From positions 138,416 to 202,415 of the forward strand of contig NZ_AYYQ01000035.1 in the NCBI RefSeq assembly GCF_001435995.1: 64,000 nucleotides of DNA, read 5' to 3'. The notes below the pieces were generated by a model. That model did not search any database and had not been told where the DNA came from. It worked only from the letters and a program-made list of their open reading frames with translations. Positions 23,252 to 44,888 of this stretch are shown piece after piece (the stretch's first letter is position 1; each line of letters begins with the position of its first letter). The DNA is from Apilactobacillus ozensis DSM 23829 = JCM 17196 (GTDB lineage: Bacteria; Bacillota; Bacilli; Lactobacillales; Lactobacillaceae). The position numbers were made by a program, and so were the translations under genes.

Positions 23252-25492
23252 ATGAAATTGAGTATTATTACTCCTTGCAAAACTAAAGATATTGAAAAAA
23301 TAAAACAATTAGCTACTAATTTAAATCGTCAAGATAACAAAGAAATTGAATGGATAGTAGCTTGTAACAGTAGTGAACTTGATTTAAGTGGATTAAATTT
23401 TCCAGTAGACATCATTAAATTTGATGGAGATAATGTTGCTCAAGCAAGGAATGCAGCAATTCGTGAGGCACATGGAGAATATTTAATGTTTGTAGATGCC
23501 GATGACTTCTTATTACCTGGCACAATTAACAATGTGATTGATAAATTAAAACCGGGTTGCTTAGTTGATTTAAAAGTGTATCCAACCTATGAGCCCGTTA
23601 ACTCTTACTTCAATGAAATTAATCAAAAGCAAGAATTTAGAATGCCTAATTGGGCTTTTAGACGTAAGCCAGAGCCAGAAGCAGAAGAAACATTACTAAA
23701 TGATAAATTTCATAAAGTTGATAAAAAATCAGTTTTTGAAGAAATTAGCCATTATTTAAAAATTAGCGGGAAAATAATCCCTAAGGGGGTCATTTGGGAT
23801 AATGACATTTTGTTTGATGAAGAAAATCCTTTATATGATGACTTTTATTTTATGGGAAAAGTTTTAAATATCATTAATAGCTTCATTGAATTTGATACTT
23901 TTAAATATGTAAAGGTTAAACATAACGACCCAATTAACGACCCTTCATTAAGTCAAATTGAATGTGATGATAGATGGAATCAAATGCTTAATTCATTCAT
24001 TAAGACTGCTGATTTGATCAATGCTAATAACTTAAAAGATTGTATAATTATACATTCAATTAAAAAAATCAATAAGTATTTTTATAATGCTGTTGTTAAC
24101 AATCACTTCAGTAGTAGTAAGCAAAGTGAAATCATGGATATCATGAGTGGATATTTTGCTAGCATCGATCACAGACTATTTAAAAATGTAAACATTATTA
24201 GTCGCCATATTTTGTTTAATATTAGAAAACACAATTACGCTAAAGCTATTCGACAAATGAAATTAATTATAGCTTTGAGATATACACATAAAATACTACG
24301 CAATAAAGGGCGTGGAATTACTAGAGCTTACTATGAAGTTATTTGTAAAAAATTGAAAGTTAATGAAAAAGTCATAGTTTATGAATCATTTTTAGGTCGA
24401 AACTATTCAGATAGTCCTAAATATATTTATCAATACAGTCAAAAACATTATCCTGGTCAATTTAAACACGTTTGGATAGCTGCTAAAGGCTCAAATGTCA
24501 AAAAAGATTTAGCTAACGAACCTAACACTAAAGTAGTTAAAAGATTTGGCTTTAGATATATGTATTATTTAGGAATTTCTAAGTATCAGGTTATAAATAT
24601 GCGTCAACCACGTTGGTTTAATAAGAAACCAGGAACTGTTTTTATGTCTACTTGGCATGGAACACCCTTAAAACATTTAGTTTTTGACATGGAAAATGTA
24701 GCCAGTGCAACTAGACTATATAAAAAAATATTTTATGAGCAATCTCGACAATGGGATTATTTAGTGACTGCTAATCAATTTTCAGTTGACGTTTTTAAGC
24801 ATGCTTTTATGTATCCTGAACAAAAAATGATTAAGTCTGGTTATCCTAGAAATGATATTTTAAGTGCGCCAAATCGTGAAGAATTATCCCGAAATATTAA
24901 AGAAAAGTTGGGAATTCCATTAAATAAAAAAGTTATTCTATATGCTCCAACTTGGCGTGATGATGAATATGTTGATGTTGGTCAATATAAATTTCAGTTA
25001 AAATTAAATATTGCTAAATTAAGAGAACAGTTAGGTGACGATTATGTCATGGTACTTAGAACGCATTATTTCATCACTAACAATTTAGATACTTCTGGAT
25101 TTGGCAATTTTGTATATAATGAATCTAGTTACGATGACATATCGGAATTATATTTGATTTCCGACATTTTAATAACTGATTATTCTAGTGTGTTCTTTGA
25201 TTATTCAATATTGAGAAGGCCAATTTTATATTACGTTTATGATTATGATAAATACGCTAGTGTGTTACGCGGATTCTATTTAGATATGAATAAAGACTTA
25301 CCAGGACCACTTTTGAAAACTAGTGATGAAGTTATTGATTCAATTAAGAATATTGACCAAGTAAGCACTGAATATGCTGACAAATATGCTAAATTTAATG
25401 AACGATTTAGTAAATGGGAAGATGGTCATGCATCCGAACGTGTGGTTAATATGTTGTTGAAAAATGATGCAAGAGTTAAAAAAATTGATTGA
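23252..25492 (+). CDS. Glycosyltransferase GT2 - CDP-glycerol glycerophosphotransferase fusion
   Basis: A 746-residue two-domain envelope enzyme. Residues about 1-200 are a GT-A family 2 glycosyltransferase (M-K-L-S-I-I-T-P-C start, DXD-like V-D-A-D-D at 81-85). After a helical linker, residues about 370-740 form a TagF-type glycerophosphotransferase: S-T-W-H-G-T-P with W468-H469-G470, Y-A-P-T-W-R at 564, R-T-H-Y-F with H605, and I-T-D-Y-S-S at 641-646. These are the conserved catalytic/CDP-binding positions of the family. Such a protein probably adds a sugar and a polyol phosphate to an envelope polymer; the exact sugar and polyol cannot be read from sequence. No signal peptide or membrane helix, so cytoplasmic face. 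The next gene starts 14 bases later. Confidence 0.85.
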   Translation: MKLSIITPCKTKDIEKIKQLATNLNRQDNKEIEWIVACNSSELDLSGLNFPVDIIKFDGDNVAQARNAAIREAHGEYLMFVDADDFLLPGTINNVIDKLKPGCLVDLKVYPTYEPVNSYFNEINQKQEFRMPNWAFRRKPEPEAEETLLNDKFHKVDKKSVFEEISHYLKISGKIIPKGVIWDNDILFDEENPLYDDFYFMGKVLNIINSFIEFDTFKYVKVKHNDPINDPSLSQIECDDRWNQMLNSFIKTADLINANNLKDCIIIHSIKKINKYFYNAVVNNHFSSSKQSEIMDIMSGYFASIDHRLFKNVNIISRHILFNIRKHNYAKAIRQMKLIIALRYTHKILRNKGRGITRAYYEVICKKLKVNEKVIVYESFLGRNYSDSPKYIYQYSQKHYPGQFKHVWIAAKGSNVKKDLANEPNTKVVKRFGFRYMYYLGISKYQVINMRQPRWFNKKPGTVFMSTWHGTPLKHLVFDMENVASATRLYKKIFYEQSRQWDYLVTANQFSVDVFKHAFMYPEQKMIKSGYPRNDILSAPNREELSRNIKEKLGIPLNKKVILYAPTWRDDEYVDVGQYKFQLKLNIAKLREQLGDDYVMVLRTHYFITNNLDTSGFGNFVYNESSYDDISELYLISDILITDYSSVFFDYSILRRPILYYVYDYDKYASVLRGFYLDMNKDLPGPLLKTSDEVIDSIKNIDQVSTEYADKYAKFNERFSKWEDGHASERVVNMLLKNDARVKKID

Positions 25493-25505
25493 GGTGAACT
25501 TTTAA

Positions 25506-28500
25506 ATGCAAAGACCTGATCTTAGTGTGGTAGTGGCCTGTTACAATGTAGACAATTTTTTAAGAGATTGTTTGGATTCAATTGCTAATACTGAGTTTCC
25601 TAAAGAAAATTTAGAAGTTTTGATGATTGACGACGGTGCTACAGATAGTACCCCGCAAATTATAGATGAGTATGCTAAAAAATATGACTTCTTTAAAGCT
25701 TTTCATAAAGAAAATGGTGGAATCAGTTCTACTAGAAACTTTGGAATTGACAAAGCTAACGGAAAATATCTAGCTTTTGTTGATGGTGATGATATTGTGC
25801 CATCTGACGCTTATACTAAAATGGTTTATAAAGCTGAGATGAATAATTCTGATGTAACATTAGGTTTTGTTAAAAGATTTGATTCTAGTCGTTATCAAAA
25901 TTCATTTTTACACAAATTTGCTGTTAAAGATGATTTAGACCGAACTCATATTAGTAATAATCATGACCTTTTGTATGACACAACTGTCTGGAATAAAGTG
26001 TACCGGCTAGATTTTTTGAAAGATAATAATATTAAATTTATTCCAGATATTATTTATGAAGATATACCTTTTACAATGCTAATTCACTTGTTATCTAAAA
26101 ATACCACAGTAATTAGTGACGTAGTTTATAATTGGCGTTGGCGAGAAACACATGATTCAATTACGCAAAGTCGTAATGCGATTACTAACTTTAATAGTCG
26201 TTTAAATGCTTTAAATATTTGTTGGGATATTTTGAAAAAGTATGATTATCTGAAAAATGATGATTTAATTAATGCTTTTAAAACTAAAATATTGAATTTG
26301 GATCTATACATTTTCTTAGAAAATGTTGGTGATAATGAAGAAGATTATATCTACAAGATTCAAGAATTAGTGTATAAATTTTTAAGAGATTGGCAAATGC
26401 TAGACTTAAAACTAGCTAGTTCATTATCTATAAAACATCAAGTGGTATACTATGCAGTTAAAACTGGCAATTTAAATTTGTTGAAGAGATTTACTTACGA
26501 TAAAAACGTAATTGAATTTAAACATACACTTAGAGGTAAAAAGTATTCTGTAAGCATTGTAGATAATAATGACCCTGAACTAATAAAAAACATTAATTTT
26601 TACGATGATTCTTTAAATATTGCGCAACGTTTAAACAATTTTTATTACGCTAAGCAGGATACCGAAATTGCTGGCTCTGGCTTTTTCAAAATAAATCATT
26701 TGCCATTAGTTAAACGAGTGGGTAAGGAAAATAATGTTAATGAAAAAATATCTGCAAAGTTAGTCAATGTTGATAATGGCAAGCAGATGTCAATTTCTTT
26801 TAAAAGAATTGCAACATCCAGATATAAGCGAATTTTAAGGCCCAAGTCAGCTTGGAAAAATGCTAAATATCGATTTAGATTTGATATTGAAAAAGCAGTC
26901 AATACTTTAGGCATAGGGACTTGGAAAATCCGTTCTACCAATCAAGTAGACGGGAAATTTATTGCTAGTGAATTCATTTCTAATCCTAGAGGTAAAGCTA
27001 CTGATAAAGTTTTAAAACCATTAGATAAGTATAATGTTAGAATTTCTTCTAAATTTAATACTAATAATGAATTATCTTTTACAGTTGATTCTCTAAATTT
27101 AATTGGTTCAGATAAAGCCAATTGGATTAGAAAACCAGTTATCAACGAAAATAAGATTAATTTTGAAGCAGGAATTATTAATCCAGATACAGTCAAAGCC
27201 ATTATTAGTGATGATAACGGAAAATTTGTTGATGGTAATATCTCTTCAAACAATGGTAAATGTTTAATAAGTTTTGATATTAAAAGTATAGAAAAAACAT
27301 TTATGCATAAAAAAGGTCATTTATTGCTGTTGCATACTCGTACAAATCATAAAATTAATTATGAATTTGAAGTTAATAGTTCTAATGAACATTTTAATGT
27401 TTTGGATAATAAAGATTTAAACGTATATCAAAACAATACACCAAATATACTGATTTCTATGAGTTATAGAAACGCTAATTTGAGCAGTATTAAAATTGTA
27501 GGTCATAAAACGTTAAAAATTAATACTAGTTTAAATATTGATTTGGCTAATTATAAACTTGATTTATCCAAAAGCAAAATTGAAATGATTAGTACTGATA
27601 AATCGGTTAGAAAAGTTATCGATGCTGACAATGGTAACTTTAAAATTAATAATAATGCGTTTTCTTTTGAAGTTGAGATGCTAAAAAAACACCAAGATAA
27701 TTTGAATATTTTAAAGGGAAACTACGTATTTAAGTTATATTTAAATATTAATAATTCAATTAAATTAGTTAAATTACTTAATACGGATGCAATTAAACTT
27801 AATAAAACTAAAATAGCTTTGAATAGTAAGCAGGATGTTGCCTTTGTAAATGCTAAAAGTAATCATTTAGATGAGCTAACTGTAAGAGTAACTCAACCAT
27901 TTGTGGGCTTTTTAAGTAAAAGTAAGGCTCGTCGAGCAATTAGCTATTCCGTATTGTACCCATTAATGCGTTTATTACCATTGCGTAAAGTTATGGTATT
28001 TGATGCTTATTGGTCCAGTAAGTTTGATAGTAATGAAAAATTAATGTATGAATATGTTCAAAAACATCATCCCGAAATTAAAACAGTGTGGTTTTTCAAA
28101 AATAGTCAGACTGAGATAAATGGAAATGGACTTAGAGTTAAAACTGATAGCTTTAAATATTGGTACTATTTAGCTGTATCTAAATATTTAATTCAAAACA
28201 CTAATTTTCCTAATCAATATTTGAAACGTAAAAATCAAATTGAAGTAGAAACATTGCATGGAACTTTCTTAAAGCATATGGGATTCGATGAACCATATTT
28301 CAGAACTGCAACACCCAAAATTCAAAATGCTTTTGCTAGACGGAATCGTCGTTGGGACTATATGGTAGTTCCATCTGAATATATGGCTAGGACTGCCAGC
28401 TCAGCCTTTGATTATCATCAAAAATTAATTAAGGCTGGTTTTCCACGTAACGATGAACTTTATACTAACAATAATGAGACTTACATTAATCATGTTAAAG

Positions 28501-30554
28501 AAAAACTAGGTATTCCAAAAGATAAAAAAGTTATTTTATACGCACCAACATATCGTGCTGACGAAGGATTTGATTTTAATCTTAACCTAGATGATTTAGA
28601 GAAAAATTTATCAGAAGAGTACGTACTGTTAGTTCGTTTACATTACTTTGTAGCACATTCTAATAGTTTTTATGACAATCCAGGTTTTGTTTTTGATGTT
28701 TCAGATTATGAAAATATTAATGATTTATATTTGATTAGTGATTTAATGATTACAGATTATTCGTCTGTAATGTTTGACTACGCACATCTTAAACGTCCAA
28801 TGTTATTTTATGCGTATGATAAAGATTGGTATTTAGATGACGAAAACCGAGGAGTTTATTTAGATTACGAAAAAGAAATTCCTGGTCCAATTGTCGAAAA
28901 CCAAAATGATTTAGTTAAATGTATCAAAAATATTAGTAATATTTCCGTGGAATATGATGCCAAATTATCTGATTTTCACGATAAATTTGCTGAGTTTGGT
29001 AATGCTGGGGATGCCTCTAAAAACGTCGTGGAAACTATCCTGGCTACCAAGAATTCTGATTTAGATCAAGAACCAGTTAAAAAAGTTATTTTTAATAAAT
29101 TCTGGCATTTCTTTAAAATTAAGAATTTTCAAGCGACTATGCTTAACTATCTTTCTAACAAATTATCTAAGAAGAATATTATTATGTTCGAAAGCTTCTT
29201 TGGTACTCAATATTCAGATAATCCTAAAGCAATTTATGAATACATGAAGAAAAACCATCCAGAGTATAAGATGTATTGGAATGTTAACTCTGAGTATGTT
29301 GATTACTTTAAGGAACATAATATTCCTTATATTGTTAGATTTGGTTATAAAGGTATTTTTAAACAATCGCGTGCTAAATATTGGGTAACTAATGTGCGAA
29401 GACCATTTAGGTGGCATCCAGCCAAAGATACTACTGTATTGCAAACTTGGCACGGGACACCTTTAAAAACAATTGGGGCCGATGTTAACATTGTTACTAT
29501 GCCTGGGAATAATCCGGCTAAATATCATAAACAAGTTTATAACGATGACCGTCGTTGGAGTAAATTGATTGCACCTAATATGTATTCTAACTTAATCATG
29601 CAAAGAGCATTTAGAAAAAATGAAAATCAAATGATGCTAACCGGATATCCTAGAAATGATATTTTATCCAACTATACTGATGCTGATATAGTCAGAATTA
29701 AGAATAAGCTTGGTATTAGCGGTGATAAAAAGGTTATTTTATATGCACCGACTTGGCGTGATGATGAGTATGTTAAAGATAGTGAATTTACTGCCAGGTT
29801 ACATCTTGATTTAAATAAAATAAAATCTCATTATGGTAAAGATGTTTTGATTTTAGTTAGAACGCATTATCTAATATCTAATAGTTTAGACTTATCCGAC
29901 TTTAGTGATATTGCCATGGATGTAAGTTTGTATGAAGATATTTCAGAACTATATTTAGTTAGTGATGTGTTAATCACTGATTATTCATCTGTAATGTTTG
30001 ATTATTCTATTTTAAAACGTCCAATTATTTTCTTTGCTTATGATTTAGAAAAATACGCTGGAGATATTCGTGGCTTTTACTTTGATTTTGTTAATAGTGC
30101 TCCTGGTAAAATTGTTAAAACCAGCGATGAAGTTATCAGTGAATTAGATAATATTTTCAAAAATCATTGGGAGCCAGATGATAAATACATTGCATTTTAT
30201 AATAAATATAATAAATGGATGGATGGTTCCGCTACTGAAAGAGTAGTTAATCAGTTATTAAATGATAATAACGTTAAGATGAATTTCGATGATAATTTAT
30301 CTAAATATAATTTACGCAATCTGATGTCATTAAAAGACGGTACAGCAGTTTGGGATGTAAACAAAGATTTTACTGTGGATGACAGTCGTGGATTTTTAGA
30401 AAATTACAATTGTTCTGTTAACGACAAATTCAAAGTCAATAAAGTTATGTTTTTACAGTCACAAGCTTTTGATGAGCAAGTTGGAAATATTGTATATGCA
30501 TTAATTGAATACAATGGTAAACCAGCATATGTTAATGCTGACAACTTAGAATAA
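25506..30554 (+). CDS. Giant GT2 glycosyltransferase with two glycerophosphotransferase domains
   Basis: A 1682-residue protein. Residues about 1-250 are a GT2 domain (S-V-V-V-A-C-Y-N-V, D-D-G-A-T-D-S-T, DXD-like V-D-G-D-D at 92-96). About 330-800 is beta-rich and unassigned, perhaps linker or carbohydrate-binding modules. About 825-1160 is a first TagF-like domain whose key motif is L-H-G-T-F (H918) rather than W-H-G-T-P; Y-A-P-T-Y-R, R-L-H-Y-F and I-T-D-Y-S-S remain. About 1224-1575 is a second TagF-like domain with an intact W-H-G-T-P (H1316), R-T-H-Y-L and I-T-D-Y-S-S. A tail of about 90 residues ends the protein. No signal peptide or membrane helix is seen. Single open frame, GAGGTGA ahead of ATG. 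The fused repertoire suggests processive synthesis of a sugar/polyol-phosphate polymer; this is inference. Confidence 0.82.
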   Translation: MQRPDLSVVVACYNVDNFLRDCLDSIANTEFPKENLEVLMIDDGATDSTPQIIDEYAKKYDFFKAFHKENGGISSTRNFGIDKANGKYLAFVDGDDIVPSDAYTKMVYKAEMNNSDVTLGFVKRFDSSRYQNSFLHKFAVKDDLDRTHISNNHDLLYDTTVWNKVYRLDFLKDNNIKFIPDIIYEDIPFTMLIHLLSKNTTVISDVVYNWRWRETHDSITQSRNAITNFNSRLNALNICWDILKKYDYLKNDDLINAFKTKILNLDLYIFLENVGDNEEDYIYKIQELVYKFLRDWQMLDLKLASSLSIKHQVVYYAVKTGNLNLLKRFTYDKNVIEFKHTLRGKKYSVSIVDNNDPELIKNINFYDDSLNIAQRLNNFYYAKQDTEIAGSGFFKINHLPLVKRVGKENNVNEKISAKLVNVDNGKQMSISFKRIATSRYKRILRPKSAWKNAKYRFRFDIEKAVNTLGIGTWKIRSTNQVDGKFIASEFISNPRGKATDKVLKPLDKYNVRISSKFNTNNELSFTVDSLNLIGSDKANWIRKPVINENKINFEAGIINPDTVKAIISDDNGKFVDGNISSNNGKCLISFDIKSIEKTFMHKKGHLLLLHTRTNHKINYEFEVNSSNEHFNVLDNKDLNVYQNNTPNILISMSYRNANLSSIKIVGHKTLKINTSLNIDLANYKLDLSKSKIEMISTDKSVRKVIDADNGNFKINNNAFSFEVEMLKKHQDNLNILKGNYVFKLYLNINNSIKLVKLLNTDAIKLNKTKIALNSKQDVAFVNAKSNHLDELTVRVTQPFVGFLSKSKARRAISYSVLYPLMRLLPLRKVMVFDAYWSSKFDSNEKLMYEYVQKHHPEIKTVWFFKNSQTEINGNGLRVKTDSFKYWYYLAVSKYLIQNTNFPNQYLKRKNQIEVETLHGTFLKHMGFDEPYFRTATPKIQNAFARRNRRWDYMVVPSEYMARTASSAFDYHQKLIKAGFPRNDELYTNNNETYINHVKEKLGIPKDKKVILYAPTYRADEGFDFNLNLDDLEKNLSEEYVLLVRLHYFVAHSNSFYDNPGFVFDVSDYENINDLYLISDLMITDYSSVMFDYAHLKRPMLFYAYDKDWYLDDENRGVYLDYEKEIPGPIVENQNDLVKCIKNISNISVEYDAKLSDFHDKFAEFGNAGDASKNVVETILATKNSDLDQEPVKKVIFNKFWHFFKIKNFQATMLNYLSNKLSKKNIIMFESFFGTQYSDNPKAIYEYMKKNHPEYKMYWNVNSEYVDYFKEHNIPYIVRFGYKGIFKQSRAKYWVTNVRRPFRWHPAKDTTVLQTWHGTPLKTIGADVNIVTMPGNNPAKYHKQVYNDDRRWSKLIAPNMYSNLIMQRAFRKNENQMMLTGYPRNDILSNYTDADIVRIKNKLGISGDKKVILYAPTWRDDEYVKDSEFTARLHLDLNKIKSHYGKDVLILVRTHYLISNSLDLSDFSDIAMDVSLYEDISELYLVSDVLITDYSSVMFDYSILKRPIIFFAYDLEKYAGDIRGFYFDFVNSAPGKIVKTSDEVISELDNIFKNHWEPDDKYIAFYNKYNKWMDGSATERVVNQLLNDNNVKMNFDDNLSKYNLRNLMSLKDGTAVWDVNKDFTVDDSRGFLENYNCSVNDKFKVNKVMFLQSQAFDEQVGNIVYALIEYNGKPAYVNADNLE

Positions 30555-30559
30555 GCTAT

Positions 30560-30595
30560 AAGATCTAACACTTAGTCAAGTGCTAGATCTTTTTT
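30560..30595 (+). terminator. Intrinsic terminator of the glycosyltransferase operon
   Basis: A 14-position stem with one mismatch (30560-30573 with 30578-30591) and a four-base loop, then a T-run. Confidence 0.88.
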
Positions 30596-41634: not shown

Positions 41635-41678
41635 TACCATTTGTATCAAACATTATAAATTATATGGTGGGGTATAGA

Positions 41679-42827
41679 TTGAAAGTCTTTTATCTGTGGT
41701 TGATAAAAATTATTTCGTTTGTATGTAATTTTAGAAAAAAGCGTAACGTTATTTACATAATGAGTTTTGATAATAACTTACAGTTAATAAAAAAAATTGC
41801 AAACAATTTGCCAAAAGATTGTAACTTGATTGTTCTTTACAAACCAGTTACTGAAGCTGCAGCGACGGATCTGGCTGCTTATGGGATAGAAACGATTCCA
41901 TTTTGGGACGGTTTCCATTTTGTATTCAAGATATTGCCTATAATAATGACTGGTCAATTAATTTTCTGTGATAACTATTTTCCATTTCTAGGAGGACTTT
42001 TTCACTCTAAAAAAATTAAGATAATCCAGTTATGGCATGCCAATGGAGCTATTAAAAAATTTGGATGGGAAGATCCTACTACTAATTTGAGAAGTAAGTC
42101 TGATAAAAAACGTTTTCAAAAAGTATACAATAGTTTCGATGATTACGTAGTTGCTTCCGAGACAATGGGGAAAGTTTTTGAGAATAGTTACCATGTTCCA
42201 TTTTATAGAATGAAAATGATTGGTTATCCTAGGTCTGACAGACTGTTTCATAATAAATGGCAAGATTTAGCTAAAAGGCGTGTCTATAAAGCTGCTCCCG
42301 AATTGAAAAATCGTCGAGTAATTTTATATGCACCTACTTATCGTGAAGATATTGGATTTAATCCGCCTAAGGATTTATCAAAAGTATTATCCTCAACTGA
42401 GGATGCGGTAGTAGTTGTTAAGTTGCACCCGTTGTTAAAAGATAAAGAACATGAATTACAAAGAATTAGTAATAATAAGAATATGTGTTTCTACAGTCAA
42501 TTATCAACTAACGATTTATTGTCAGTTACAGATACTCTAATAACTGATTATTCATCAATCGCATTTGATTTTGCATTACTACCTAATGCACATTCTTTAC
42601 TATTTTTCATGTTTGATTTAGATAAATATAAAAAAGATCCAGGTATTCAAGATGATATGTTAAATTGGTTACCAAGTAAACCAATTATGGATACTAAAAC
42701 TTTAGCAAAAGCTATAAAATCAAATCAAAAAACTGATTTTAGCAAATTTAATCAAAAATGGAATACTTACAATGATGGTTTTGCAATTGAAAGATTAATT
42801 GATAAGTATATTAAAACATTAAAGTAA
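41679..42827 (+). CDS. tagB: Teichoic acid glycerophosphotransferase TagB-like (primase)
   Basis: TagB/TarB adds the first glycerol phosphate from CDP-glycerol to the lipid-linked disaccharide of wall teichoic acid at the membrane. The 382 residues equal the length of known TagB. Visible motifs are Q-L-W-H-A-N-G-A-I-K-K-F-G (W119-H120), typical of TagB rather than TagF, then Y-A-P-T-Y-R, V-K-L-H-P and I-T-D-Y-S-S (288 on). The hydrophobic N-terminus may bind the membrane. TTG at 41679 is favoured because GGTGGGG lies about 7 bases ahead; an ATG at 41664 precedes that site. First gene of tagB-tagG-tagF-like-nfo. Confidence 0.87.
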   Translation: MKVFYLWLIKIISFVCNFRKKRNVIYIMSFDNNLQLIKKIANNLPKDCNLIVLYKPVTEAAATDLAAYGIETIPFWDGFHFVFKILPIIMTGQLIFCDNYFPFLGGLFHSKKIKIIQLWHANGAIKKFGWEDPTTNLRSKSDKKRFQKVYNSFDDYVVASETMGKVFENSYHVPFYRMKMIGYPRSDRLFHNKWQDLAKRRVYKAAPELKNRRVILYAPTYREDIGFNPPKDLSKVLSSTEDAVVVVKLHPLLKDKEHELQRISNNKNMCFYSQLSTNDLLSVTDTLITDYSSIAFDFALLPNAHSLLFFMFDLDKYKKDPGIQDDMLNWLPSKPIMDTKTLAKAIKSNQKTDFSKFNQKWNTYNDGFAIERLIDKYIKTLK

Positions 42828-42843
42828 AGGAAGTGTGACTGAC

Positions 42844-43653
42844 TTGAAAGAAGTCATTACATTAATTAAAGAGCAATTTGGAAATCTAGGCATTATGTTT
42901 AGAATTTCTAGGTATCAAGATAAATCTGACTATCAAAGTCACTATTTAGGATTAGTATGGGAATACCTATATCCAATTATTCAAATTGGAATTTATTGGT
43001 TAGTATTTGGATTCGGCCTTAAAAAAGGAACTTCTGGTGGAGTAGATTATTTATCATGGATGGTAATTGGAATCACACCTTGGTTCTACATGAATAGTGT
43101 AGTTTTAGATGCTTCGAAGAGTATTTATCAACAAGTTGGTATGGTTTCTAAAATGAAGTTTCCGGTTAGTGTATTACCAACGATTAAAGTTATTTCCAAT
43201 CTTAGCTCATTTTGGGCAATGTTAGTGGTATCAATCTTTATTGCTTTCTTTAAAGGCGGAATTGTAATAAATATGTACTGGATTCAATGGATTTACTATT
43301 TCTTTGCGATGATATGTTGGTTAGTAGCATTCAGTATATTTAATTCAACTATTACTATTTTAGTAAGGGATTATCGAATTTTCTTACAATCATTAATGCG
43401 AATGCTTTTCTACATGTCTGGGGTATTATTCAATTTTGAAACGAACGCCTTTCCAGCTCCATTAGTAAGAATTTTCCAATTAAATCCATTTTTCTACATT
43501 ATTTCTGGATTTAGAGAATCTATGCTAGGGGATGACTGGTTCTGGCAAAAGCCAATTTTAACAATAACCTTCTGGCTTTTCGTATTATTCTTTTTATTGG
43601 TTGGTTCACATCTACATTACAAATTCCGTTCTAGATTTGTGGACTTAATTTAA
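42844..43653 (+). CDS. tagG: Teichoic acid ABC transporter permease TagG
   Basis: ABC-2 type permease that, with the ATPase TagH, flips the lipid-linked teichoic acid across the membrane. The 269 residues have about six transmembrane segments, the N-terminal amphipathic S-R-Y-Q-D-K-S-D-Y-Q-S-H-Y-L-G-L-V-W-E-Y region and M-V-S-K-M-K-F-P in the loop, as in TagG. I favour TTG at 42844, with AAGGAAGTG ahead; GTG at 42835 lies inside that site. Between tagB and the tagF-like gene. tagH is not next to it nor elsewhere in this window. Confidence 0.9.
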   Translation: MKEVITLIKEQFGNLGIMFRISRYQDKSDYQSHYLGLVWEYLYPIIQIGIYWLVFGFGLKKGTSGGVDYLSWMVIGITPWFYMNSVVLDASKSIYQQVGMVSKMKFPVSVLPTIKVISNLSSFWAMLVVSIFIAFFKGGIVINMYWIQWIYYFFAMICWLVAFSIFNSTITILVRDYRIFLQSLMRMLFYMSGVLFNFETNAFPAPLVRIFQLNPFFYIISGFRESMLGDDWFWQKPILTITFWLFVLFFLLVGSHLHYKFRSRFVDLI

Positions 43654-43673
43654 AAATAGAAATGAGGATTTTT

Positions 43674-44888
43674 ATGAATAGTTTAAAGCAAAAATTTATA
43701 AATTGTATTAAAATTCTCATTAGAGGTGGACTCATCGTTATTAACGATGGGTTTATTTGTTTACCTGTAAAAAAGAATTTAGTTATTTTTGAAAGTTTTA
43801 GTGGTAAAGACATTAATGATAATCCGGCTGCTATTTATCGTGAGTGGATTAAACATCATGATAAAAATTTAGCTTATTTTAGTGTTAAACCTAAATTTTA
43901 CAAGCAACTTAAGGCAGTACATCCAGATATTAAAATTGTTAAGCGATTTATGCCGAAATGGGTTTGGCTAATGGCACGAGCTAATTTTTGGGTTTTTAAT
44001 GCTAGAATTCCAGGTTGGTGGAAGAAAAATAGTAAAACTACTTATATTCAAACTTGGCATGGAACACCTTTGAAAAAATTAGGTATAGACATTGATAACG
44101 TAGAGATGCCTGGAACTAATACTAAAAAATATAAGCAAAGATTTGTTAAAGAATCTCATCGTTGGGACTATTTAATTGCGCCAAATCAATATTCTAAAGA
44201 AATTTTTAAACGGGCATTTGATTTTAAAGGCGAATCTTTAGACTTTGGCTATCCCCGAAATGATGTATTATACCAATACAGGGATGCTGATATGAGAAAA
44301 CTAAAAAATGATTTAGTAGGAAATCCTGACTGTAAAGTGATTACCTATGCACCTACTTGGCGTGATGATGATTATACTAGTAAGGGAGCATATAATTTTG
44401 AATTGCCGTTTAGCCTTAGTAAATTCTTTTCTAAGGTTTCTGATGATACTATTTTAGTCATTAGGCCGCACTATTTAATTAAGGATTATATTAATATTAA
44501 GGGCTTTGAAAGTAGGGTTAAAATTTTAGCTGATGATGACATCAGCAAGATATATTTAATTTCTGATTTGTTAATTACTGATTACTCATCTGTAATGTTT
44601 GATTATGCTAATTTAAAACGACCAATGCTTTTTTATGCTTATGATTTAGAACATTATCGAGATAGTCTAAGGGGTTTTTATTTTGACTATCAAGATGAAT
44701 TGCCAGGGCCTTTAGCTGAATCCGAAGCTGAATTTTTAAAAGCAATAAGTGACTTTAACTTAAATGGTAATTTTAAAGGTTTTGCAGGTAAATTTAATAA
44801 TTTTTATAATAAATATTGTGATTGGGAATCTGATAAATCTTCAAAACAAGTTGTTAACTTAATGGAGGATATTTCAAATGGAAAATAA
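43674..44888 (+). CDS. CDP-glycerol glycerophosphotransferase, TagF/TarF-like
   Basis: Transfers glycerol phosphate units to extend teichoic acid. The 404 residues form a single GT-B domain: F-E-S-F-S-G-K, Q-T-W-H-G-T-P (W128-H129), [13 protein letters not shown] (H266) and [11 protein letters not shown]. It lacks the long N-terminal part of Bacillus TagF, so it resembles TarF-size enzymes. ATG at 43674 follows GAGGAT; an ATG at 43662 is too near. The gene carries an internal hairpin about 60 bases from its start. Its 3' end overlaps nfo by 11 bases. Confidence 0.85.

What the first reader, a model, noticed from the sequence alone, without database searches (positions are those of the whole stretch)
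25506..30554. A single 1682-residue protein with three predicted transferase modules
Seen: a GT-A glycosyltransferase domain, a roughly 470-residue beta-rich segment, and two TagF-like glycerophosphotransferase domains in one open frame. Known: TagF/TarF enzymes usually carry one such domain. Inference: the protein may alternately add sugar and polyol phosphate, building a repeating envelope polymer without separate enzymes.
Basis: partly seen in the sequence, partly recalled or inferred. Interest (0 to 1): 0.6.

Follow-up and report, generated by a model that had tools for sequence, protein, structure and literature searches.

The report
Three-module teichoic acid polymerase protein
A lactic acid bacterium (Apilactobacillus) makes one very large protein that joins a sugar-adding enzyme to two glycerol-phosphate-adding enzymes, most likely to build a cell-wall polymer; simpler two-part versions are known, and this three-part one is a new variant whose parts seem to work as two units.

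Summary
ORF 25506-30554 encodes 1682 aa: a GT2 (GT-A) domain, a ~480-aa spacer, two PF04464 (TagF) domains and a 96-aa tail. It is a real gene: 16 of 16 Apilactobacillus genomes held carry it (15 in one frame), and so do other Lactobacillales and a Pediococcus damnosus plasmid. All modules are under purifying selection with catalytic motifs present. Spacer and tail match no known family.

New here: TagF1 and TagF2 belong to different branches. In 395 genomes of the order, the 21 TagF1-type domains found all share an ORF with a GT2, 12 of them as 1144-1206-aa proteins without TagF2. In 36 proteins the GT2 and TagF1 motifs are both kept (35) or both lost (1), while TagF2 is lost separately (2 of 24). 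So it looks like a GT2-TagF1 unit fused to an independent glycerophosphotransferase. Three homologues have broken frames, one inside GT2.

Most likely it elongates wall teichoic acid from CDP-glycerol and a nucleotide sugar, much like Gram-negative TagF-like capsule polymerases. "Without separate enzymes" is wrong: TagA-, TagB- and stand-alone TagF-like proteins are encoded. Whether the sugar enters the backbone is unknown; nothing was assayed.

The parts
25491..25497 (+). Ribosome-binding-like site GAGGTGA, 8 nt before the ATG
   Evidence: sequence printed
25506..30554 (+). Whole gene, 1682 aa plus stop
25506..26465 (+). GT2 (GT-A) glycosyltransferase domain, residues 1-320; D93/D95/D96 and E185-D186 invariant in the 16-row alignment
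26466..27917 (+). Spacer, residues 321-804; no known family; probably strand-rich (low-confidence model)
27978..29045 (+). TagF1, residues 825-1180; H918, H1046, D1084 invariant; seven residues shorter than TagF2 after the APT.R motif
29169..30263 (+). TagF2, residues 1222-1586; H1316, H1454, D1492 invariant
30264..30551 (+). Tail, residues 1587-1682; no known family
30560..30591 (+). Hairpin followed by T-run, terminator-like
   Evidence: z -3.7; 2 of 200 shuffles fold as well; not flagged
23252..25492 (+). 746-aa TagF-like protein 13 bp upstream; present in 2 of 16 Apilactobacillus genomes (G000, G014)
41664..42827 (+). 387-aa TagB-like protein
   Evidence: TarB model 164.9 bits, below its cut-off of 500
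42835..43653 (+). 272-aa ABC-2 permease, TagG-like by context
   Evidence: the name TagG is my reading
43662..44888 (+). 408-aa stand-alone TagF-like protein
   Evidence: TarF model 393.9 bits, below its cut-off of 550

Best explanation
A cytoplasmic wall teichoic acid elongation enzyme with two separable engines in one chain. Engine 1 is GT2-spacer-TagF1: the GT2 adds a (probably beta-linked) sugar and TagF1 adds glycerol phosphate, or possibly a sugar phosphate, next to it, giving a glycosyl-polyol-phosphate segment as in type II teichoic acid. Engine 2 is TagF2, a CDP-glycerol-dependent glycerophosphotransferase that works independently, extending poly(glycerol phosphate) or adding a further unit per repeat. 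Chains would start on the lipid-linked unit made by TagO/TagA/TagB-type enzymes. Shown here: domains, motifs, conservation, different origins of TagF1 and TagF2, GT2 and TagF1 always found together and mostly kept or lost together. Inferred: reactions, donors, acceptors, sugar, wall location, membrane contact.
For: Catalytic residues of all three modules invariant in 16 aligned proteins; H1316 and H1454 align with H444 and H584 of S. epidermidis TagF (their catalytic role from PMC5974469). TagF1 clade 99/99 is sister (94/92) to TagF of two-module GT2-TagF proteins, TagF2 clade 98/99 lies among stand-alone TagF. 21 of 21 TagF1-type domains at 414 bits or more in 395 genomes share an ORF with a GT2. 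GT2 and TagF1 motif states agree in 36 of 36 proteins; TagF2 is damaged in 2 of 24 giants that keep both, and intact in the one that lost both. TagD and a TagA-family protein present. In 14 of 16 Apilactobacillus genomes the giant and a ~410-aa TagF are the only PF04464 proteins besides a TagB-like one. Two-engine precedents: Cps and HS1.09 enzymes.
Against: No assay. In the published GT-A/TagF-like enzymes the product is a sugar-phosphate polymer, and the glycerol-phosphate polymers come from TagF-like/GT-B enzymes (PMC5974469), so TagF1's donor may not be CDP-glycerol. Only one case of joint GT2/TagF1 loss. In G239 the frame is broken inside GT2 while TagF1 is intact, a possible exception if the break is real. 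G341, G286 and G022 branch in unresolved order. The 408-aa TagF may be the real polymerase. Wall location was not tested; the helix ranking gave no support for membrane helices before the TagF domains.
Confidence: 0.5

Rival explanations
1. TarS-like decorator plus polymerase: both TagF domains polymerise glycerol phosphate and the GT2 only hangs sugars on the backbone as side branches.
For: The GT2 domain matches PDB chains that I recall as TarS (5tze, 5.1e-22) and TarP (6h1j, 1.4e-8) (names recalled, listed only as glycosyltransferases). Staphylococcal plasmid pHL28-1 has a separate 568-aa GT and a 757-aa GT2/TagF protein side by side. L. plantarum WTA is glucosylated poly(glycerol phosphate) (PMC3511166).
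Against: Does not explain why GT2 always travels with the TagF1 type and shares its fate while TagF2 does not. No TarS_C1 domain in the spacer.
Confidence: 0.27
2. The protein makes a capsule or exopolysaccharide-type phosphoglycan rather than wall teichoic acid.
For: The characterised relatives with this logic are capsule polymerases (PMC5974469, PMC11924219).
Against: In G019 the gene is next to ABC genes that read as tagG/tagH (my reading of the translations); in G353 and G373 a related GT2-TagF1 gene lies among TagF-family genes; TagD and a TagA-family protein are encoded.
Confidence: 0.12
3. GT2-TagF1 builds only a short cap or linkage segment, and TagF2 or the 408-aa TagF makes the long chain.
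For: The modules are independent; stand-alone TagF proteins sit next to several homologues.
Against: Nothing direct; not testable by sequence.
Confidence: 0.1
4. Chance open frame or assembly fusion.
For: G009, G022 and G239 show the protein in pieces.
Against: Single frames of the same length in many other assemblies and genera; a 1678-aa frame on a complete plasmid record; purifying selection in every segment.
Confidence: 0.01

Closest known systems
TagF-like capsule polymerases, GT-A/TagF-like type (Litschko et al. 2018, PMC5974469: abstract and three sections read)
   Same: N-terminal GT-A domain and a TagF-like domain in one chain, both needed, separable in trans
   Different: Gram-negative capsule enzymes; one TagF-like domain; products of this type are sugar-phosphate polymers; no ~480-aa spacer of this family
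HS1.09 of C. jejuni and Cps3D of A. pleuropneumoniae (PMC11924219: abstract and one section read; Cps3D is PDB 8qoy)
   Same: One chain alternates sugar and glycerol phosphate from CDP-glycerol
   Different: TagF-like domain followed by a retaining galactosyltransferase; one TagF-like domain; Gram-negative
S. epidermidis TagF (PDB 3l7i)
   Same: TagF2 aligns over 383 residues with the catalytic histidines; weak N-terminal GT2 similarity, 44 bits
   Different: 729 aa, one TagF domain, no spacer
Short GT2-spacer-TagF1 proteins of other Lactobacillales (12 found here)
   Same: GT2 and the TagF1 subtype
   Different: 1144-1206 aa, no TagF2, no tail; spacer not recognisably alike
RefSeq 'bifunctional glycosyltransferase family 2 protein/CDP-glycerol:glycerophosphate glycerophosphotransferase' (757 and 958 aa records)
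   Same: GT2 plus TagF in one chain, already annotated
   Different: One TagF domain
TarS-type WTA glycosyltransferases (TarS named from memory)
   Same: GT2 domain of the same broad group
   Different: Separate proteins; TarS_C1 not detected here

Membership tests
PF04464 CDP-glycerol glycerophosphotransferases (TagF/TarF-like) | Score above the curated Pfam cut-off, both domains | tested here: met
   378.3 and 358.9 bits against 22.1
PF04464 CDP-glycerol glycerophosphotransferases (TagF/TarF-like) | Catalytic histidines equivalent to TagF H444 and H584 | tested here: met
   H918/H1046 and H1316/H1454
PF04464 CDP-glycerol glycerophosphotransferases (TagF/TarF-like) | Transfer of glycerol phosphate from CDP-glycerol | not testable with these tools
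   TagD is encoded, but nothing was assayed
NCBIfam TarF equivalog NF041712 | Whole-protein score above 550 bits | tested here: inconclusive
   674.7 bits, but as the sum of two domains in a 1682-aa protein
TarL ribitol-phosphate polymerase (NF041713) | Score above 1000 bits; TarI for CDP-ribitol | tested here: not met
   204.8 bits; only a weak IspD-family match in a 460-aa frame
GT-A/TagF-like polymerases (Litschko 2018) | N-terminal GT-A with DxD plus a TagF-like domain in one chain | tested here: met
GT-A/TagF-like polymerases (Litschko 2018) | Alternating copolymer made in vitro | not testable with these tools
   needs enzymology
GT-A/TagF-like polymerases (Litschko 2018) | Group 2 capsule locus of a Gram-negative bacterium | tested here: not met
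   Apilactobacillus
TarS | TarS_C1 domain after the GT2 | tested here: not met
   no Pfam match in the spacer up to E 1; no profile similarity to a TarS_C1-bearing segment
Wall teichoic acid polymerase | Loss of wall polymer on deletion | not testable with these tools
   inferred from gene content only

The most novel reading that the evidence does not exclude
A Gram-positive type II wall teichoic acid polymerase with two engines in one chain: GT2-TagF1 lays down glycosyl-polyol phosphate and TagF2 adds plain glycerol phosphate, giving a three-part repeat or block copolymer whose pattern is set by the fused modules and changes when one engine is lost, as in G165 or G341.
Probability: 0.28. Interest if true: 0.7.

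Novelty: new variant of a known kind. Interest (0 to 1): 0.48.

Why it matters
How Gram-positive bacteria build teichoic acids with sugar inside the main chain (type II) is little known; Litschko et al. say so and leave open whether TagF-like fusions do it. This family offers natural variants: all modules intact (most Apilactobacillus), no TagF2 (1144-1206-aa forms), TagF2 damaged (G341), GT2 and TagF1 damaged (G165). The division of labour can therefore be tested by comparing enzymes and wall polymers.

Tried and rejected
Structure prediction of spacer and tail gave mean pLDDT 42.3 and 46.8 from two-row alignments; no fold search was made on such models. Internal-repeat test on three spacer blocks: nothing. 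Spacer against the middle of a short GT2-TagF1 protein and against a TarS_C1-bearing segment, tail against a DUF5776 region: no usable similarity. Amphipathic ranking did not single out the stretches before the TagF domains. The viral-contig scan with the full alignment returned 6 loci matching only GT2-sized or smaller parts; not followed. Phage records: 85 with a match, 0 covering 80% of the query, the five listed unannotated; not followed. The genome-contig scan used the single protein and found only A. xinyiensis. Paper searches: no listed title describes such a protein, and searches returned 0 papers; apart from the three papers named in the report only listings were seen.

Full report
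1. Observation. The frame 25506-30554 (+) is open for 1682 codons. It starts 13 bp after a 746-aa TagF-like gene, has GAGGTGA 8 nt before the ATG, and is followed by a hairpin and T-run (the scan did not flag it). Pfam finds Glycos_transf_2 at 7-138 and Glyphos_transf twice; profiles of my own place the TagF domains at 825-1179 and 1222-1586. Residues 321-804 and 1587-1682 match no Pfam family up to E 1. The spacer profile finds no PDB chain up to E 5, the tail profile five weak ones (best E 0.072).

2. Organism. The window's genome is 1.48 Mb in 36 contigs.

3. A real gene. Of 60 relatives searched, 15 are of the same genus; 14 of them hold one frame of 1677-1685 aa and one (G009) is broken inside TagF2. 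The genus search covered 16 genomes with the window's own. In a 16-row alignment (window, 14 congeners, G019) GT2 D93/D95/D96 and E185-D186, TagF1 H918/H1046/D1084 and TagF2 H1316/H1454/D1492 are invariant. dN/dS against A. xinyiensis is 0.07 for GT2, 0.20 spacer, 0.07 TagF1, 0.06 linker, 0.08 TagF2, 0.20 tail; dS is 0.7-1.2, so these are approximate.

4. Distribution. The spacer profile matches 7 of 295 order-wide genomes, three of them Apilactobacillus, all in frames of 1667-1722 aa. The whole order of modules is seen in G019, G165 and G300 and, with a weak or undetected spacer match, in G286 (another family) and G341. In G239 the first ~82 positions of GT2 lie in another frame; in G022 the protein is in three ORFs. 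On P. damnosus plasmid pL21532-3 (mobilizable, beer isolate) a 1678-aa copy with all motifs, 61% identical to that of G019, follows a 405-aa TagF gene; it runs across the record start and is absent from the gene table; IS256 and IS5 transposases lie around it.

5. TagF1 and TagF2 differ. In a tree of 46 TagF domains TagF1 of the giants is a clade (99/99), sister (94/92) to the TagF of short proteins in G057 and G031; TagF2 is a clade (98/99) inside a group with stand-alone TagF proteins. The program warned of long branches, among them G031's domain and G022's TagF2, which falls outside the TagF2 clade. In a ten-row alignment TagF1 and the short-form domains share a seven-residue gap after APT.R.

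6. TagF1 travels with GT2. A TagF1 profile of ten rows was run on 395 genomes of the order, at most four candidates being scored per genome. Twenty-one places reach 414 bits, the next 366.6. Six of the 21 belong to genomes whose sequence was in the profile. All 21 share an ORF with an N-terminal GT2 (in G239 only its later part): 9 giants and 12 proteins of 1144-1206 aa that end after TagF1. In G353 and G373 the short form lies between a 400-aa and a 1010-aa TagF-family gene. In a tree of GT2+TagF1 (29 of the 36 proteins; seven congeners left out) all giants fall together (100/100) and all short forms together (100/100) under a midpoint root, which fits one fusion.

7. Joint and separate loss. 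The motif table covers 24 giants (16 Apilactobacillus, G019, G341, G165, G239, G300, G286, G022, P. damnosus) and 12 short forms. GT2 and TagF1 motifs are both kept in 35 and both damaged in one (G165: DSRD, E185 to T, H918 to R, H1046 to D), where TagF2 is intact. TagF2 is intact in 22 of 24 and damaged in two that keep GT2 and TagF1: G341 (H1316 to Q, other changes; the second histidine is kept) and G022 (H1316 to Q, H1454 to S). G009 and G022 were read from their pieces. Limits: one joint loss only; the order of G341, G286 and G022 is unresolved and long branches meet; G239's break inside GT2, if real, would be an exception.

8. Pathway setting. The genome has TagD (204.1 bits), a WecG/TagA-family protein (196.7 bits) and two Glycos_transf_4 proteins, presumably MraY and TagO (names by inference). 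The only IspD/TarI-family match is weak, in a 460-aa frame that may be GlmU (not followed), so CDP-ribitol is unlikely. In the genus search 14 of 16 genomes have the giant, one 410-418-aa TagF and one 384-407-aa TagB-like protein and nothing else of PF04464 (in G001 the TagB-like gene is split at contig ends, in G009 the giant is broken); G000 and G014 add the ~746-aa TagF. So in most of the genus the giant and the ~410-aa TagF are the only elongation candidates. In G019 the giant lies beside genes that read as tagG and tagH (my reading).

9. What is known. Litschko et al. 2018 (PMC5974469; [quoted passage not shown] Against a simple carry-over: their GT-A type makes sugar-phosphate polymers, the GT-B type the glycerol-phosphate ones. 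HS1.09 (PMC11924219; abstract and one section) alternates glycerol phosphate and galactose. In L. plantarum deletion of tagF1-2 removes glycerol from WTA (PMC3511166, passages). RefSeq already calls shorter GT2+TagF proteins bifunctional, so such a fusion is not new in itself; the three-module form, the TagF1 subtype and the joint fate of GT2 and TagF1 are what this work adds, as far as the paper searches listed under Tried and rejected show.

10. Verdict. Observation confirmed; interpretation partly supported; new variant of a known kind. Sequence cannot tell whether the sugar enters the backbone or hangs from it.

Noticed in passing
window 23252-25492: A 746-aa TagF-like gene sits directly upstream in only 2 of 16 Apilactobacillus genomes (G000, G014); its TagF domain is 73% identical to that of a 769-aa protein that also precedes the giant in G165, another genus. 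Possibly gained as a cassette.
   Followed up: partly
L063 20145-24829 and L067 1-2500 (NZ_CP012272.1): P. damnosus plasmid from beer carries a 405-aa TagF plus an intact 1678-aa homologue near IS256/IS5 transposases: a mobile teichoic acid gene pair that the plasmid gene table misses.
   Followed up: partly
L032 6710-9907 (G043): A 1065-aa protein with TarS_C1 followed by two TagF domains: another tandem TagF fusion with a different partner.
   Followed up: no
L034 5160-9449 (G034): A 1429-aa protein with TagF followed by a GT-B (Glycos_transf_1) domain, the second capsule-polymerase architecture, in Lactobacillaceae.
   Followed up: no
L065 4034-5740 (Staphylococcus sp. HL28 plasmid): A 568-aa glycosyltransferase with a DUF5776 domain at its C-terminus, next to a GT2/TagF gene.
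   Followed up: no
L026 1574-6482 (G022), L027 1953-6985 (G009), L049 3507-8697 (G239): Frames of the giant are broken in these three genomes, at different modules; mutation, switching or sequencing error cannot be told apart here.
   Followed up: partly
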